Shown here piece after piece: positions 1 through 24,173 of a stretch of DNA of 64,000 bases (the stretch's first letter is position 1; each line of letters starts with the position of its first letter). Both the position numbers and the translations under genes were made by a program. The notes under the pieces were generated by a model, which saw nothing but the letters and a program-made list of their open reading frames with translations, was not told where the DNA came from and ran no database searches. Source of the stretch: Saprospiraceae bacterium (GTDB lineage Bacteria > Bacteroidota > Bacteroidia > Chitinophagales > Saprospiraceae); NCBI GenBank assembly GCA_021739645.1, contig JAIPBL010000008.1:1-64000 (forward strand), given 5' to 3'.

Positions 1-2024
1 CCGAGGCCGCCGAGGCCGGGCGACTGCTCCCCGGTGGCCCACTGGTAGGCGTAGGCCAGCCCGGCGGGGGGCAGGGCGGGCGTCATGCTGGTCACAATGC
101 TGCCGTTCGGGGCGTTGCAGGAGGTGTTCGGCGTGGTGGCCCCGTCCACTTGGAGGGGGATGTCCTCGGCGGGCACGATGGCCCCGTAGGCGGCGGTGCA
201 GCCGTTGGCGCCCGTCACGGTGACGGCGTACTGCCCGGCTGTGAGGCCGTAGAGGTCCTCCGTGGTGGCGGCATTGCTCCATGCAAAAGTATATGGCGGT
301 GCGCTCCCACTTACCTGCAGGTCAACGCTGCCGGTGCCGCTGCCGCAGAAATCGGGGCCGGTGGTGGCGAAGAGAGTGGGCACGGAGGGCTGGTCGGCGA
401 CGGTGAAGCTGGCGCTGGCGGTGCAGGTGCCTAGGCTGACGGTGACGGCGTAGCTGCCGGGCGCAAGGCCGAAGAGGTCCTCCGAGGTGGCCCCGCTGCC
501 CCAGGCAAAGGTGAAGCTCCCGACGGGCGGCGGCGTGGGCGTCACCGAGAGGTTGACGGTGCCGTTGTTCCCGTTGCAGGTGGTGTTCGGGGTGACTGTT
601 CCGGTGATGGCGATGCTGACGGCGTTGTCGGCCACGGTGGCGCTGGCGGTGGCGGTGCAGCCGTTGGCCCCGGTCACCGTCACGGTGTAGGTGGCGGCGG
701 GCACGCCGGAGAGGTCCTCCGAACCTGCGCCGTTGCTCCAGTTGTAAGTGTAGGGTGCCGTGCCGCCCGATGCGGTCAGGTTCACGCCGCCGCTGCCGAG
801 GCCGCAGGTGGTGGCGGTGGCGGCGGTGGCGAGCGAGGGCGGCTCCGCCGTGTCGTCCACGGTGAAGGTGGCGCTGCCCGTGCAGCCGTTGGCATCGGTG
901 GCGGTGACGGTGTAGCCGCCAGCCGTGAGGCCCGTGAGGTCCTCGGTGCCGGCGCCGTTCGACCAGGAAAAGGTGTAGCTGCCAGCGGGCGAGGGGGTCA
1001 GGTCGATGGCCCCGTTGGCGGCGGTGCAGGAACTCGCCGGGGCGGTGGTGCCCCCGAGGCTGAACGGCACGGTGTCGGCCAGGGTGTAGCTCTCCACCTC
1101 CGAGCAACCGTTCGCCCCGGTGACGGTGACGGTGTAGGTGCCGGGGGCTAGGTTGGCGATGTCCTCGGTCGTGGCCCCGTTCGACCATGCTATGGTATAG
1201 GGCGGCTCGCCGTCGGTGACGGTGAGGTCTATGCTGCCGTTGGGAAGGGCGCAGGTGGGGTCGGTGGGGGTGGCGGTGAGGACGGGGGCGTCGGGCTGGT
1301 TTTGGACTATTTGCGGGTTATATACCACGGTACAAGTTCCGTAAGTCACTGTGGCTTGGTAAATACCAGCAGAAAGCCCAAGGTTGTCCTCAGTGGTAAC
1401 TCCATTTGACCATAACCAAATGAAGGGAATAGAGGTCAAGGGAGTCAAAATAAATCCACCATTGGGCGGACCTAAACAGGCAGTATTGTGCAAGCGTTCC
1501 TGATCATAAAAATTACCAAAAAAGGGGCCTCCAAGAATTAGTGTGTAATTGGGAACGAAATAGGAAAGAAACTGGAACTCCCCCAATGCGTCCTCTACTA
1601 ACACCGTGTAATTGAATCCTCCAATCAGGCCAGTCACGTCTTCCGTATCGGCACCGTTGCTCCAGGTAAAAGTATAGGGTGGAGTACCGCCGCTTACGGT
1701 TAGGTCAATAGAGCCGAGGCCTACCGTGCATGTGTCTTGGTAAACCACAGCTGTTACTACCAAAGGCAGCAGGAAGCCCCTGCTTCCAGCTAGAACTCCA
1801 TTTGGGATATAATGCTTTCCCTTAAAATTTTTCAATGAAGGTGTTATTAAACATTTGGTACCTTCAGTATCTATTCCGTATGGATAATCGTTATTCAACC
1901 AATAATCCATCTTATTACCAACAATAGCACTGAAAATTGGATGTGCTTCAATCAAATAGGTATTCCATAGCATGAAAATTCCTAAATAAAAATAATTATA
2001 ATTTGATTGAATAGTTATTTTCAT
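1..2024 (-). CDS. SprB-repeat cell-surface protein, 5' part (runs off left edge)
   Basis: The frame is open from an ATG at 2024 to the window edge, about 674 residues with no stop, so the C-terminus is missing. It starts MKITIQSNYNYFYLGIF, with a weak hydrophobic stretch that may be a signal. From about residue 95 I count eight SprB-like units built around W-S-N-G followed by T-E-D-L/I (for example PYTFTWSNG, PYTIAWSNG, PYTYNWSNG) and ending in TYTVTVTGANGC-like strands. SprB repeats are typical of Bacteroidota adhesins exported by the T9SS; a sorting domain would lie outside the window. Residues after about 241 (bases below about 1300) are coded by very GC-rich DNA, whereas the first 240 are AT-rich. 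Adhesin or gliding role is inferred from the family. Confidence 0.85.
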   Translation of the reverse strand, partial: MKITIQSNYNYFYLGIFMLWNTYLIEAHPIFSAIVGNKMDYWLNNDYPYGIDTEGTKCLITPSLKNFKGKHYIPNGVLAGSRGFLLPLVVTAVVYQDTCTVGLGSIDLTVSGGTPPYTFTWSNGADTEDVTGLIGGFNYTVLVEDALGEFQFLSYFVPNYTLILGGPFFGNFYDQERLHNTACLGPPNGGFILTPLTSIPFIWLWSNGVTTEDNLGLSAGIYQATVTYGTCTVVYNPQIVQNQPDAPVLTATPTDPTCALPNGSIDLTVTDGEPPYTIAWSNGATTEDIANLAPGTYTVTVTGANGCSEVESYTLADTVPFSLGGTTAPASSCTAANGAIDLTPSPAGSYTFSWSNGAGTEDLTGLTAGGYTVTATDANGCTGSATFTVDDTAEPPSLATAATATTCGLGSGGVNLTASGGTAPYTYNWSNGAGSEDLSGVPAATYTVTVTGANGCTATASATVADNAVSIAITGTVTPNTTCNGNNGTVNLSVTPTPPPVGSFTFAWGSGATSEDLFGLAPGSYAVTVSLGTCTASASFTVADQPSVPTLFATTGPDFCGSGTGSVDLQVSGSAPPYTFAWSNAATTEDLYGLTAGQYAVTVTGANGCTAAYGAIVPAEDIPLQVDGATTPNTSCNAPNGSIVTSMTPALPPAGLAYAYQWATGEQSPGLGGL

Positions 2025-18314: not shown

Positions 18315-21300
18315 ATGGCAGAACTTGTACAATATATACCTTTAAGAAGCTGTGTGACTTGTGATCCAGAGGTACGTGCAAGGATTGGGTTAACAGAAGC
18401 GAGCCTTTACGCTATCCTGGACAACATACCAGATGCTATTTTCTCTGTTGATACGGAGTTCCATCTCATCACAGCCAACAAGCGCTTTAAGGAAAGAGCC
18501 TTGCTTGTCACTGGCATTGCGTTTGAGCCAGGTGATTCCATCCTTGTACAAGGCAAAAACCAAGACATCATTGATCAATGGAAAATTGACATCGAGAAAG
18601 CTTTGAAAGGAGATTCCTTCAAGGTTGACACGGAGTATGTAGATGAGACTGAGGCGATTTACCGGGAGACTAGTTACACACCGATTTGGCAAGAAAAGAA
18701 AATTGTCGGAGTATCCTGTCACTGCAAAGATGTCACTGAAAGCCGGGTCATCAAGAATCAACTGATCGAAAAAGAGGTACTTTTTCGGACACTGCTTGAG
18801 AATAGCCACGATGGTATCGCCATGCTTAGTGCGGGCGGCAGGTTGAAATACATCTCGCCTTCCGTTGGGCGAATTCTCGGCTATACTTTTGAAGAAATGC
18901 TGGAAATAGGGATGCCAAGTTTGGTCCACCCCGATGACTTGGGAATCGTCATCAGTTTTTCCGAAAAACTGGCATCGCAGTACGGCAAAAGCAGCCAGAT
19001 AAATTATCGTATGAAATCGAAGCCTGGCAGTTGGAGGTGGATACATTGCCACTACACCAATATGCTGCACGAGCCATCCATCAAGGCATTTGTGGCCAAC
19101 TACGAAGACATCACCGAAACGAGAGCATTAGAGTTTAAATTGGAGAATACCGTGCATCAATTGATTGAAGCCGATGAGCGGCAAAGCTCCATTCTCAACT
19201 CACTGGGTGTCAACATCGCCATGCTGAACAGCGACGGTATTATCGTTGAAGTCAATGCAGAATGGAGGAAATTTGCCGATGAATACGGGTTTGTGGGTAA
19301 CAATACTGGCATTGGGGATAATTATGTTTTAGAAGCAAAAAGCGCCAACTGCCATGCTGACGATACAGCCTACAAAGTTGGGGAGGGAGTACGAGCCGTA
19401 CTCAAAGGTGATAAAAAGACGTTTTCGATGGAGTACACTTGCCACTCTCCGCTCCAAAAAAGGTGGTTCAAGGTAATAGTCAATCCGCTGTATAAAAAAG
19501 ACATGGGCGGGGCGGTAGTGTTACACATGGACATTACCGACAGAAAACTTACTGAACTCCAAATTGAATTTGAGCGACGCAATCAGGCGGCACTGATCAA
19601 TGGAACGAACGACCTGATATGGAGCATTGATGCCGATATGCGTCTTATCACCGCCAATAACACTTTCTTGTCAGTCATCAAGGATAGAGCTGGCATTGAT
19701 TTGAATCCCGGTGATAATATGCTTTTTTCTGCTAAGTCTATTGATGGCTATAAAGATTATTGGACCAAGCAGTACAAGCGGGTGCTGTCAGGAGAGAAAT
19801 TTACCGAGATTTTACACCGGTTGGAGCCATCCGAGTATTGGGCAAAAATTTTCTTTAACCCCATCTGGGAAAACGAAAAGGTTATCGGAGCAGCGTGCTA
19901 TTATAGGGATATCACCGAAAGAAAGAAGTCGGAGCGGCTTATCCTGCAAACCCAACAGATGATGGCGGAGGCCGAAAGCCGTGGGCATTTTGGCTGTTGG
20001 GAGTTTGATTTGTTCGATTTAGAAAACATGCCAGCAAACGACCTTCGATGGTCAGATGAAGTTTATCGGATTTATGGCTACGAACCGCAAGGTTGCCAAC
20101 CATCTCATTCGCTTTTTTATAACGCAGTACACCCTGATGACCGTGACGCTGTTCGGGAAGGAATTCAAAAATCGCTTAAAGATTTCTCAGTAGCAGCAAT
20201 TGATCATCGGATTTTCATGCCAAATGGTGAAATGCGTTGGGTTCATGAGGAGGCTCGCATCATTGTGAACCAAGACACTGGTAAGCCTATCAAAATGGTC
20301 AGCACCATCCATGACATTTCTGAAAGGAAAGCTTCGGAGGAAAAGTTACTTGAGGCAGAGCGGAATTACCGGGATATATTTAACAAAGCCAGCGACGCCA
20401 TCTATGTCTTTGATGCGGAATTGGCCACTATCGTGGACGCGAACTTAATGGCATGTGAAAGAACGGGCTATTCACTTGAGGAATTGGTAAACTGCGATTT
20501 GGAGATGCTAATGGCTGGGACGCCGGGTTATACCTTGACGGATGCTTTCTCCCATCTTGCGAAAGCAGCCAATGGCGACACTGAAGTGTTTGAATGGTTG
20601 TCCAAAAGCAAGGCTGGCAAGCTAAATTTAGATGAGGTAACTACATCCAGTATAACCATTGCAGGACGAAGATGTGTGCTTGCGTCATTCCGAAATATTG
20701 AGGAACGAAAACAAGCAGAAACAAACCTCCTCAAAAGTGAGGAACAATACCGCCAGATAGTGGATACCTCGCAAGAAGGTATCGTGATGATAGACTCAAA
20801 AAACCGGATATCCTTTGTAAATGACAAGATGTGTGAGATGCTGGAATACACCAAGGATGAAGTATCTGGCAAAGAATTGTTTGATTTCCTGGATGGAGAG
20901 ACAAAGCAGATTTCATTATCAGCCAACGAAAGACGGCGACAGGGCAAAACTGAAAACTATGACATACAGCTAATCACCAAAACGGGGAGGCAAGTCTGGA
21001 CAAATATTTCGGCCAACCCAATTTTTGGAAAAGATGGGGAATTCAATGGCGCTCTGGCCATGCTCACTGACATCACCGAACGAAAACAGATAGAAGAGTC
21101 CCTGCGGCAAAGCAATGAGCGCTACGAGTTGGTCACAAAAGCTACCAATGATGCAATCTGGGATTGGAACCTTTTGACTGATGAAGTTTATTGGAGCGAG
21201 GGCTATGAAAGCATTTTTGGTTACCCCAAAGGAAAAGATGACAATAGTGCCAAGATTTGGAATAGCCGAATTCACCCGGAGGATGCAGAAAGGGTTAAGA

Positions 21301-23750
21301 AGGACGTTCAGCAAGCTATTGATGACTCAGCTTCTAATTTCTGGCAAGGTGAGTATCGGTATATTAAAGTAGATGGTTCTGTGGCAAATGTTTATGACCA
21401 AGGCTATATCACCTATAATGAAGCAGGCATACCTACTCGAATGGTGGGTGCTATGCGGGATATTACAGCACAAAAACAGGCTGAAGAATCCCTCAGGCGC
21501 AGCAATGAGCGTTTTGAACTGGTGTCCATGGCTACGAATGATGCCATTTGGGATTGGAACCTGGTTACCGACGAACGCTACTGGTCGGAAGGCTACGAGA
21601 GCATCTTCGGCTACTCCCGGGAGGGGGGCGGGGTCAACCTCCAGATCACCATCGGCCGCATACACCCCGATGACAGGGAACGCATCCGCACTTCCTGGTC
21701 GAAAACGTTGAGCGACCCGACCGCCCATTCCTGGGAAGAGGAATACCGTTACCTGAGGGCCGACGGCACGGTGGCCTACGTGTACAACCGGGGCTACATC
21801 GTGTACGACGAAACTGGCAAACCGGTGCGGATGGTGGGCGCTTTGCAGGACATTAGCGCCCGCAAAAATGCAGCGGAACAACTGCGCCTCAGCAACGAAA
21901 GGTACGAACTTGCTACCATGGCCACCAAGGATGCTATTTGGGACTGGAACATCAATACTGGTGCGCTATCTTGGACCGAAGGTTATGAAACCCTGTTTGG
22001 TTACCCTAATTCGAGAGAGGGCCTTAATTTTGATACTTGCTCCAGTAGGATACATCCTGATGATTCGGAACGGGTGAAGGCAAGCTTACGGAAAGCAATG
22101 TTTGATACCTCAACAGACTACTGGCAGGGTAACTATCGATACAGGAAAGCGGATGGTTCTTATGCCTTCGTATTTAATCAAGGCTATATTATGCACGATG
22201 AAGGTGGAATGCCAATTCGGGTAGTAGGTGCTATGCAAGACATAACAGCTCAGAAGCAGGCGGCAGAGTCATTGCGGATAAGCAATGAGCGCTATGAACT
22301 TGCCACAAAAGCCACCAATGATGCCATCTGGGACTGGAACTTGGTGAACAATGAGCATTACTGGACAGATGGTTATGAATTAACTTTTGGCTACTCATTA
22401 GAAAAAGACGACCTCAGCGTTGAGGCTAGTTTAGCCCGAACGCATCCTGATGATAGGGAAAGGCTTTGGTCTATCGTTCAAAATGCGATAAATAACCCAT
22501 CTTACAATTCATGGCAAGCAGAATACCGATATCAAAGGAAAGATGGTGCTTATGCCACTGTGTTCAACCAAGGCTACGCCATTCGCAAGGAGGAAGGCGG
22601 ACCTATCCGAATGGTCGTGGCTATGCAGGATATCAGCTCTCGGAAAAAGGCAGAAGAATCCCTTCTCAAGTCGGAAGCCAACCTTCGCACCATCTTTGAC
22701 CACGCCGACCGGGCTTATGTATTACTTGACAAAGACTTCCACATTCTTTCCTTCAATACCGTTGCCACTGAATGGGCCAAAGTTGTTTACAATGCTGAGT
22801 TTACAGAAGGAGAATCCATTATTGCCTATTTGGAGGAAGAAAAGAAAGAAGAGGCAAAACGCAGCTTAGAAAGTGTGCTGGAAGGAAATCACCTTGCCCA
22901 TGAATCGCACCACCGCACCCCTGATGGAACTGAAAAGTGGTTTAGTGTCAGACGATATCCAGTGCGCAACGAGGATGGATCAATAATTGGAATCTGTATT
23001 GCCACAAAAGAAGTTACCCAACGACGTCAATTTCAAATGGAAAGGGACAGGATGGTCGCAGAAATTGTGCAACGCAACAAAGACCTTGAGCAATACGCCT
23101 ACATTGTATCTCACAACCTGCGTGCTCCAGTCGCCAACATCGTGGGCTTTTCGGATGTGCTGCTTAACACGGAATTAGAAGATTGTGAAAAACAGGATGT
23201 GCTGGAAGGGCTTGATGTTTCGATAAAAAGATTGGACAATGTTATCTCCGACTTGAACATTATCCTACAGGTAAAAAAACAAATGAACGACTTGAAGGAA
23301 CCTGTCCAATTGTCTTCTCTTACCCACGATATTGTAATAAGTATTGGCGATTTAGTTGAAAAACAAAATGCCATCATCCAGATAGATTTCAATGAGGTTG
23401 AAGAATTACACACCTTCAAGAGCTATCTGCACAGCATTTTTTATAACCTAATATCGAACAGTATCAAGTACAGAAGGCCAGATGTCCCACCATTGATCCA
23501 AATCCGAAGCAGTAAATCCGAAGGCAAAATCTTGCTGAAATTTAAGGACAATGGACTGGGTATTGACCTAAAAAAGAGAAACGGTCAAGTATTCGGAATG
23601 TACAAACGATTCCACACGGAGGTGGCTGAGGGGAAAGGAATGGGGCTTTATATGGTAAAAACACAAGTGGAAGCCCTTGGCGGCAATATTTCGGTGAAAA
23701 GTGGAGTAAATATTGGAACAGAATTTAGTATCGTATTTAATAGCAAATAA
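18315..23750 (+). CDS. cytoplasmic multi-PAS sensor histidine kinase (about 12 PAS domains)
   Basis: 1811 residues with no signal peptide or membrane segment. I count about 12 PAS/PAC units between residues 25 and 1575, most ending in a D-I-T-E/A-R/Q-K linker. Units 8-11 are close paralogues repeating at exactly 130 residues, each with D-A-I-W-D-W-N, Y-E-x-x-F-G-Y and H-P-D-D. The kinase core follows: phosphoacceptor His near 1600 in YIVSHNLRAPVANIVGF, N-box NLISNSIKYRRP, G1 DNGLGID, F-box FGMYKRF and G2 GKGMGLYMVK. It is predicted to sense several intracellular signals and to phosphorylate the receiver encoded 18 bases downstream. Signals are unknown. Unit 9 is coded by markedly GC-rich DNA. 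Confidence 0.95.
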   Translation: MAELVQYIPLRSCVTCDPEVRARIGLTEASLYAILDNIPDAIFSVDTEFHLITANKRFKERALLVTGIAFEPGDSILVQGKNQDIIDQWKIDIEKALKGDSFKVDTEYVDETEAIYRETSYTPIWQEKKIVGVSCHCKDVTESRVIKNQLIEKEVLFRTLLENSHDGIAMLSAGGRLKYISPSVGRILGYTFEEMLEIGMPSLVHPDDLGIVISFSEKLASQYGKSSQINYRMKSKPGSWRWIHCHYTNMLHEPSIKAFVANYEDITETRALEFKLENTVHQLIEADERQSSILNSLGVNIAMLNSDGIIVEVNAEWRKFADEYGFVGNNTGIGDNYVLEAKSANCHADDTAYKVGEGVRAVLKGDKKTFSMEYTCHSPLQKRWFKVIVNPLYKKDMGGAVVLHMDITDRKLTELQIEFERRNQAALINGTNDLIWSIDADMRLITANNTFLSVIKDRAGIDLNPGDNMLFSAKSIDGYKDYWTKQYKRVLSGEKFTEILHRLEPSEYWAKIFFNPIWENEKVIGAACYYRDITERKKSERLILQTQQMMAEAESRGHFGCWEFDLFDLENMPANDLRWSDEVYRIYGYEPQGCQPSHSLFYNAVHPDDRDAVREGIQKSLKDFSVAAIDHRIFMPNGEMRWVHEEARIIVNQDTGKPIKMVSTIHDISERKASEEKLLEAERNYRDIFNKASDAIYVFDAELATIVDANLMACERTGYSLEELVNCDLEMLMAGTPGYTLTDAFSHLAKAANGDTEVFEWLSKSKAGKLNLDEVTTSSITIAGRRCVLASFRNIEERKQAETNLLKSEEQYRQIVDTSQEGIVMIDSKNRISFVNDKMCEMLEYTKDEVSGKELFDFLDGETKQISLSANERRRQGKTENYDIQLITKTGRQVWTNISANPIFGKDGEFNGALAMLTDITERKQIEESLRQSNERYELVTKATNDAIWDWNLLTDEVYWSEGYESIFGYPKGKDDNSAKIWNSRIHPEDAERVKKDVQQAIDDSASNFWQGEYRYIKVDGSVANVYDQGYITYNEAGIPTRMVGAMRDITAQKQAEESLRRSNERFELVSMATNDAIWDWNLVTDERYWSEGYESIFGYSREGGGVNLQITIGRIHPDDRERIRTSWSKTLSDPTAHSWEEEYRYLRADGTVAYVYNRGYIVYDETGKPVRMVGALQDISARKNAAEQLRLSNERYELATMATKDAIWDWNINTGALSWTEGYETLFGYPNSREGLNFDTCSSRIHPDDSERVKASLRKAMFDTSTDYWQGNYRYRKADGSYAFVFNQGYIMHDEGGMPIRVVGAMQDITAQKQAAESLRISNERYELATKATNDAIWDWNLVNNEHYWTDGYELTFGYSLEKDDLSVEASLARTHPDDRERLWSIVQNAINNPSYNSWQAEYRYQRKDGAYATVFNQGYAIRKEEGGPIRMVVAMQDISSRKKAEESLLKSEANLRTIFDHADRAYVLLDKDFHILSFNTVATEWAKVVYNAEFTEGESIIAYLEEEKKEEAKRSLESVLEGNHLAHESHHRTPDGTEKWFSVRRYPVRNEDGSIIGICIATKEVTQRRQFQMERDRMVAEIVQRNKDLEQYAYIVSHNLRAPVANIVGFSDVLLNTELEDCEKQDVLEGLDVSIKRLDNVISDLNIILQVKKQMNDLKEPVQLSSLTHDIVISIGDLVEKQNAIIQIDFNEVEELHTFKSYLHSIFYNLISNSIKYRRPDVPPLIQIRSSKSEGKILLKFKDNGLGIDLKKRNGQVFGMYKRFHTEVAEGKGMGLYMVKTQVEALGGNISVKSGVNIGTEFSIVFNSK
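21111..22670 (+). repeat. four 390-bp tandem PAS-coding repeats
   Basis: The word agcaatgagc, or its variant agcaacgaaa, recurs at 21111, 21501, 21891 and 22281, each exactly 390 bases apart. A fifth equivalent junction is at 22671. Each unit codes for one PAS domain plus linker. Units 1, 3 and 4 have the local AT-rich composition; unit 2 is GC-rich from about 21535 to 21890. Confidence 0.9.
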
Positions 23751-23768
23751 ACCAAACAACAACAATCA

Positions 23769-24173
23769 ATGTCATCTAAAACAAATTTCATCATCGTTGA
23801 TGATGATAAACTGGTCATCATGTTTTGTAGTATGATGATAAGAAAAGCCTCTAGCCAGTCAAAAGTCAATACTTTTGAAGTGCCAGAATCAGGACTTGAG
23901 TTTATCGGAAAAGCTGAATTTATTGACAAGGAAGATGAAACCGCTAAAACGGTCCTCCTACTTGACATAAATATGCCTTCCATGACTGGCTGGGAATTCT
24001 TGGAATACTATGATAAATTGGATGAAAAGATAAAAGACAACCTAAAAATCTACATTCTTTCTTCTTCGGTGGATGCCCGTGACATGGAACGTGCGGCAGC
24101 CAACAAATATGTAAAAGCATTTTTGGTCAAGCCGCTCACGAAGGAAATGCTGGTCACCATCACTGAAGTCTAG
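23769..24173 (+). CDS. single-domain response regulator
   Basis: 134 residues, a stand-alone CheY-like receiver. An acidic triad DDD follows strand 1 (IIVDDDK), the phospho-acceptor Asp is in LLLDINMPSMTGWEF, Ser/Thr in LSSS, and the Lys in VKPLTKE. There is no output domain, so it probably passes phosphate onward or acts by protein contact. The start is 18 bases after the kinase stop, so the two form an operon and most likely a cognate pair. Confidence 0.95.
   Translation: MSSKTNFIIVDDDKLVIMFCSMMIRKASSQSKVNTFEVPESGLEFIGKAEFIDKEDETAKTVLLLDINMPSMTGWEFLEYYDKLDEKIKDNLKIYILSSSVDARDMERAAANKYVKAFLVKPLTKEMLVTITEV

What the first reader, a model, noticed from the sequence alone, without database searches (positions are those of the whole stretch)
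21535..21890. A single GC-rich PAS unit within a tandem array of AT-rich paralogues
Of four tandem PAS units with an exact 390-bp period, only the second is GC-rich (41 of 60 at 21601-21660, against 24 of 60 at 21181-21240 and 26 of 60 at 22381-22440). The edges are sharp and the reading frame and spacing are intact. This is what exchange of one repeat unit with a foreign homologue would leave. It parallels the GC step in the SprB-repeat gene, so repeat-domain genes here may be recombination hot spots.
Basis: partly seen in the sequence, partly recalled or inferred. Interest (0 to 1): 0.62.

Follow-up and report, generated by a model that had tools for sequence, protein, structure and literature searches.

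The report
GC-rich unit in sensor-kinase repeat array
One of four repeated sensor domains in a bacterial signalling protein is written with unusually GC-rich codons, but it most resembles its neighbours and the same gene in close relatives, so import from a distant bacterium is unlikely; similar composition patches occur in other genes of this genome.

Summary
In a 1,811-residue multi-PAS sensor histidine kinase (18315-23750, +), four tandem PAS units repeat every 390 bp. Only unit 2 (21501-21890) is GC-rich: GC3 0.83 over 21555-21863 against 0.47 in the rest of the gene; 0 of 2,000 shuffles reach it. The edges are less sharp than claimed (95% intervals 105 and 147 bp wide).

Foreign import is not supported. 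Unit 2 is an intact PAS_3 domain closest to the same gene in a congener (63%) and to its own neighbours (53-57%). Nothing closer turned up in 398 family genomes, 395 class genomes, plasmids, or an 85,000-species pattern scan (best outside the genus 50%). The best tree puts it inside the genus clade (100/95), though a position outside is not formally rejected (p 0.099). Its codon choice is host- or congener-like.

Such patches are not unique here: 28 of 542 sampled ORFs carry a GC-rich one (38 an AT-rich one), more often in repeat-bearing genes (13 of 94 versus 15 of 448), partly through length. Most likely unit 2 is an old native unit of an array that varies in copy number in the genus (4/2/1/1) and gained GC locally; exchange with an unsampled higher-GC close relative remains open.

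The parts
18315..23750 (+). Multi-PAS sensor histidine kinase, 1,811 aa
   Evidence: ORF; Pfam PAS families, HisKA, HATPase_c
21111..21500 (+). PAS array unit 1, GC 0.438, GC3 0.41
21501..21890 (+). PAS array unit 2, the GC-rich one, GC 0.590, GC3 0.76; intact PAS_3 domain
21555..21863 (+). Maximum-likelihood GC3 island (GC3 0.83); left edge 21489-21594, right edge 21806-21953 (95%)
21891..22280 (+). PAS array unit 3, GC 0.459, GC3 0.45
22281..22670 (+). PAS array unit 4, GC 0.456, GC3 0.47
22695..23030 (+). Further PAS domain (PAS_4) next to the kinase core
   Evidence: residues 1461-1572
23091..23255 (+). HisKA phospho-acceptor domain
   Evidence: residues 1593-1647
23427..23738 (+). HATPase_c catalytic domain
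   Evidence: residues 1705-1808
23769..24173 (+). Single-domain response regulator (receiver) next to the kinase, 134 aa
   Evidence: ORF; Pfam Response_reg 47.5 bits, cut-off 30.2; NCBIfam matches all below their cut-offs; a receiver ORF also follows the kinase in G154 (L116:9296-9709)

Best explanation
Unit 2 is an old, native member of a tandem PAS array in a sensor histidine kinase found in this organism and some congeners. The array varies in copy number (4 here; 2, 1 and 1 in three congeners). The four units diverged long ago and remain intact PAS_3 domains, presumably signal-input modules upstream of the kinase core. The GC-richness of unit 2 most likely arose locally in this lineage by long compositional divergence, in a genome where a fair number of genes have GC-rich or AT-rich patches. 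Shown: the GC island, the intact frame, the genus-level affinity in the best tree, the copy-number differences, the patchiness in a genome sample. Inferred: that the GC rise happened in place, and the signalling role. The driver (drift, GC-biased repair during recombination, or selection on codons) is not identified.
For: Amino-acid identity of unit 2: 0.62 and 0.59 to the two G154 units, 0.56/0.53/0.52 to own units 1/3/4, 0.51 to G199, 0.55 to G209 (MAFFT). Units 1, 3 and 4 are about as far from each other (0.52-0.58), so unit 2 is no protein outlier. Tree of 109 rows: the eight genus units form one clade, 100/95; unit 2's end branch is 0.39 against 0.37-0.55 for the other own units. The G154 gene lies in like surroundings (methylmalonyl-CoA mutase upstream, receiver ORF downstream). 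Array size is 4/2/1/1. No closer homologue: 398 family genomes, 395 class genomes, plasmids with 48% in the best listed record, 85k-species pattern scan (best is the G209 gene itself at 57%, then 50%; 80 of 187 confirmed loci kept). Among codons of the same ending class, unit 2 fits the host's high-GC3 windows as well as those of the congener G205 (difference 0.3 nats) and better than Methylobacterium (+4.9; 0 of 88 Methylobacterium windows reach that) or two GC-rich Cytophagales/Hymenobacter loci (+4.3; 6% of 36 windows reach that). Patches are not rare: 28 of 542 own ORFs of at least 300 aa have z>=5, and the kinase gene ranks 13th.
Against: The island is strong (z 7.0, rank 13 of 542) and covers about one unit, which drift gives no reason for. 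A tree with unit 2 outside the genus clade is not rejected (p-AU 0.099; 0.151 on a 22-row set). The four own units do not form a clade in the best tree (one-clade p-AU 0.073), which leaves room for exchange of units between lineages. GC1 and GC2 inside the island are also raised (0.55/0.47 against 0.51/0.36), and Arg:Lys is 13:3 against 26:20 in the other three units (not significant, Fisher p 0.13), as expected of a sequence long exposed to GC pressure, here or elsewhere.
Confidence: 0.52

Rival explanations
1. Homologous exchange with the same array of an unsampled, higher-GC close relative (same genus or near it) replaced about one unit.
For: Step-like island of about one unit with frame and length kept. 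Congeners vary in GC: 0.43-0.57 over 13 mutase loci including our own, and GC3 0.50-0.79 in the 9 that read in frame. Own units do not form one clade in the best tree. In G154 units 1 and 2 differ at 2, 20 and 24 positions in their first, middle and last third, and identical synonymous codons are unevenly spread (0 of 500 permutations as extreme), so units of this array may be partly homogenised in the genus.
Against: No donor in any search. In the congener samples 103-codon windows at GC3 0.83 or more are no commoner than here (G205 8 of 721, G209 1 of 1,621, G203 0 of 814; own 112 of 6,183); but the congeners with the GC-richest mutase loci other than G205 (G061, G154, G204) were not sampled this way. 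Unit 2 is as far from G154 unit 1 as the other own units are (nucleotide identity 0.65 against 0.64-0.69), so exchange with a G154-like lineage was not recent.
Confidence: 0.28
2. Import of one PAS unit from a remote high-GC bacterium.
For: GC of the island (0.61) lies near the top of the host range; p-AU 0.099 for unit 2 lying outside the genus units; codon choice does not separate it clearly from a mixed Verrucomicrobiota/Acidobacteriota set (12% of 68 windows reach its score).
Against: Best foreign protein identity is 50%, below the congener G154 and the own neighbours; best tree places it inside the genus clade; codon choice is unlike Methylobacterium.
Confidence: 0.1
3. Assembly chimera: a GC-rich unit from another organism was joined into this contig.
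For: The genome is in 147 contigs with 3.33% estimated contamination; no reads were available.
Against: The longest exact word that unit 2 shares with the rest of the window is 14 bases, and the longest in-register run with a sister unit is also 14, which by my reckoning is too short for joining repeat units within this gene at usual k-mer sizes; both junctions keep frame and the 390-bp length; no source sequence was found.
Confidence: 0.07

Closest known systems
PAS_3 (Pfam PF08447) repeats in multi-PAS sensor histidine kinases
   Same: All four array units match PAS_3 above its cut-off; the kinase core is HisKA plus HATPase_c; nearest solved chain by sequence is 3mr0_A, named sensory box histidine kinase/response regulator, E 1e-15.
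   Different: Four neighbouring units of exactly 390 bp, one of them with a separate base composition.
GC-rich recombining genes in bacteria (Lassalle et al. 2015, PMC4450053; passages seen)
   Same: Those passages report higher GC, most of all at synonymous positions, in recombining core genes; here GC3-rich patches are commoner in repeat-bearing genes.
   Different: The paper compares whole genes between recombining and non-recombining sets; here the patch is one domain, recombination was not shown in this genome, and AT-rich patches are at least as frequent (38 against 28 ORFs), which a GC-directed bias would not predict.

Membership tests
PAS_3 domain (PF08447) | Profile match above the curated cut-off over nearly the whole model | tested here: met
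   Unit 2: 73.1 bits against 25.6, model positions 3-88 of 89
Sensor histidine kinase | HisKA followed by HATPase_c | tested here: met
   HisKA 28.5 bits (cut-off 26.9), HATPase_c 55.1 bits (cut-off 26.4)
Sensor histidine kinase | Phosphotransfer to a cognate receiver | not testable with these tools
   A receiver ORF lies next to it (23769-24173); no assay possible
Imported (horizontally transferred) repeat unit | Closer to a foreign homologue than to its neighbours and orthologues | tested here: not met
   Best foreign 50% against 63% congener and 57% neighbour in the search outputs; best tree inside the genus clade 100/95; but p-AU 0.099 for outside
Imported (horizontally transferred) repeat unit | Composition and codon choice atypical of the host | tested here: inconclusive
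   103-codon windows with GC3 of at least 0.83: 112 of 6,183 in the host sample, so rare but present; codon choice within the ending class is host-like
Gene conversion between units of the array | Long identical stretches between units | tested here: not met
   Longest in-register exact run between unit 2 and a sister unit is 14 bases; in congener G154 such a pattern is present

The most novel reading that the evidence does not exclude
Tandem-domain arrays in this genus (PAS, SprB, PKD) are places where single units or blocks are repeatedly exchanged or converted between lineages of different GC, leaving unit-sized GC3 patches; unit 2 would then be a one-domain exchange from an unsampled high-GC congener, and patches could be used to map such exchanges.
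Probability: 0.22. Interest if true: 0.5.

Novelty: new member of a known kind. Interest (0 to 1): 0.2.

Why it matters
A base-composition step alone is often read as horizontal transfer. Here the protein-level check points the other way, and a genome sample shows that such steps occur in a fair number of this organism's genes, so composition is a poor guide to foreign origin here. If the enrichment in repeat-bearing genes holds in complete genomes of several strains, it would give a way to ask whether domain arrays recombine more than other genes in these bacteria.

Tried and rejected
Antisense gene: a 184-aa reverse ORF covers 21327-21881, but it spans parts of both unit 1 and unit 2 and so does not match the island; a reverse ORF also lies over the two units of G154 (L116:7222-7968). 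Taken as a by-product of the sense codons; not tested further.

A second copy elsewhere in the genome as donor: none found. Besides the four units, the only matches at E<=0.001 are another stretch of the same gene (32%) and a stretch of a 653-residue frame on contig C94 (23%).

Selection on amino acids (Arg for Lys): 13:3 against 26:20, Fisher p 0.13, not significant.

Self-BLAST of whole proteins to label repeat genes failed (it marked only 1 of 542 ORFs as repetitive, and gave the kinase itself a repeat fraction of 0); replaced by 60-residue chunks. One search's repeat columns should be ignored.

Mutase GC3 for 4 of 13 loci (G203, G208, G200, G201) was dropped because the stretch read contained stops. 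A fourteenth genus genome, G207, had no match in that search.

Structure prediction was not run: the PAS_3 match was judged enough.

Literature: six searches gave one paper used (PMC4450053, passages only). No listed title or abstract start described an intragenic GC patch in a PAS array; the other papers were seen only as listings.

Full report
What is there. The stretch lies in one gene, 18315-23750 on the + strand, 1,811 residues. Pfam finds several PAS families, then HisKA and HATPase_c, so it is a multi-PAS sensor histidine kinase. A single-domain receiver ORF follows at 23769-24173. Four of the PAS domains form a tandem array with a period of exactly 390 bp, starting at 21111, 21501, 21891 and 22281.

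The GC island. Unit GC is 0.438, 0.590, 0.459, 0.456, and GC3 0.41, 0.76, 0.45, 0.47. The best GC3 segment is 21555-21863 with GC3 0.83 against 0.47 in the rest of the gene; 0 of 2,000 codon shuffles and 0 of 2,000 ten-codon block shuffles reach it. The left edge lies in 21489-21594 and the right edge in 21806-21953 with 95% probability under a step model on third positions. The edges therefore agree with the unit borders but do not prove them.

Is unit 2 foreign? At protein level it is not an outlier. Pairwise identities among the four units are 0.52-0.58. In a search of 199 family genomes, our own included, the best match outside our own is the same gene in a congener, G154, with two units at 63% and 60%. 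That gene has like neighbours, a methylmalonyl-CoA mutase upstream and a receiver ORF downstream. Two more congeners, G199 and G209, carry the gene. The array has 4 units here, 2 in G154, 1 in G199 and 1 in G209, and none of their units shows a comparable GC rise (GC3 0.52-0.63). In a search of the 14 genus genomes with the kinase end, 4 including our own had a match of at least 52% identity; the listed matches of the others are at 35% or less. Some of those genomes are only about 80% complete.

A wider search found nothing closer. At E<=1e-22, 8 of 398 family genomes match: our own and three congeners, and four genomes of other genera at 46% or less. At E<=1e-28, 40 of 395 class genomes match, our own included; the others listed are at 49% or less. 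In plasmids the best listed record has 48% (436 records match, 20 listed). That scan starts from exact short peptides of unit 2, so it would miss a distant relative but hardly a recent donor.

Tree. Of 109 rows (8 genus units; one other PAS stretch of the same protein; 100 units found with a profile of the four own units, in 80 loci brought in by searches with unit 2), the eight genus units form one clade with support 100/95; unit 2 pairs weakly with unit 4 (83/27). With only 129 columns the tree has limits: a tree that puts unit 2 outside the other genus units is 5.7 log units worse and not rejected (p-AU 0.099); on 22 rows p is 0.151, and there the deep forks are unresolved; the four own units as one clade have p 0.073. 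So the genus affinity is the best reading, not a proof.

Codon choice. Among codons of the same ending class, unit 2's core scores -46.0 with the table of its own genome's high-GC3 windows, -46.3 with the congener G205, -47.2 with a mixed set of Verrucomicrobiota and Acidobacteriota, -50.3 with two GC-rich loci of an uncultured Cytophagales and a Hymenobacter, and -50.9 with Methylobacterium. Unit 2 is more host-like than all 88 Methylobacterium windows and than 94% of the 36 windows of those two loci; against the mixed set the test does not decide (12% of 68 windows reach it).

How unusual is the patch in this genome? I sampled 1,506,280 of 6,157,607 bases. The contigs were chosen because searches for kinases, SprB and PKD domains had named them, so repeat genes are over-represented. 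Of 542 ORFs of at least 300 residues, 28 contain a GC3-rich patch with z>=5 after correction for amino acids, and 38 an AT-rich one with z<=-5; the kinase gene ranks 13th (z 7.0). GC3-rich patches occur in 13 of 94 repeat-bearing and 15 of 448 other ORFs (Fisher p 0.0002). For ORFs of at least 1,000 residues it is 12 of 49 against 1 of 27 (p 0.026), but the repeat genes are still longer (mean 1,669 against 1,257). By size class the excess lies in the longest genes only: 0 of 27 against 4 of 316 at 300-600 residues and 1 of 18 against 10 of 105 at 600-1,000. Congener samples: G209 1 of 171, G203 5 of 70, G205 5 of 71; their long genes show no significant difference (5 of 18 against 1 of 12, p 0.36). 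Among eight of the strongest cases of a first 405-kb sample (226 ORFs) are SprB and PKD proteins, but also a cyclophilin and an LptD protein.

Is there recombination in the array? In this genome there is no sign of recent unit-to-unit conversion that involves unit 2: its longest exact in-register run with a sister unit is 14 bases. In G154 the two units are 88% identical; their 46 differences fall 2, 20 and 24 in the first, middle and last third, and identical synonymous codons are unevenly spread (0 of 500 permutations as extreme). That looks like partial homogenisation, so such exchange may happen in this array, although uneven constraint could add to it.

Reading. Unit 2 is most simply an old native unit of an array that varies in copy number, with a GC rise acquired in this lineage. 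What drove the rise is not known. A general GC-biased conversion in bacteria has been argued from whole genes (PMC4450053, passages seen), but the equal or higher number of AT-rich patches here speaks against a simple GC-directed process. Exchange with an unsampled, GC-richer close relative is the main rival; remote import and assembly error are less likely.

Noticed in passing
window 3-2024 (-): A SprB-repeat gene that runs off the contig's start jumps to GC3 0.92 (0.54 in the rest of the gene); window bases 1-1000 have 71% GC. It has the highest patch score in the sample (z 11.1).
   Followed up: partly
L285:4874-8239, L272:1-4980, L271:8213-11302, L236:9240-10697: Other ORFs of the same genome with strong GC3 patches (z 9.2-10.8); not annotated.
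   Followed up: no
L143:14704-15354: A cyclophilin-type isomerase gene has GC3 0.86 in codons 73-170 and 0.43 elsewhere.
   Followed up: no
G154:C186:14413-15180 (in L116): Two PAS units differ at 2, 20 and 24 positions in successive thirds, which suggests partial conversion between them.
   Followed up: partly
window 21327-21881 (-): Long reverse ORF (184 aa) over parts of units 1 and 2; a reverse ORF also lies over the G154 units.
   Followed up: no
G209:C23:5857-8952: A 3,284-residue open frame holds at least two PAS units 42% identical to unit 2.
   Followed up: no
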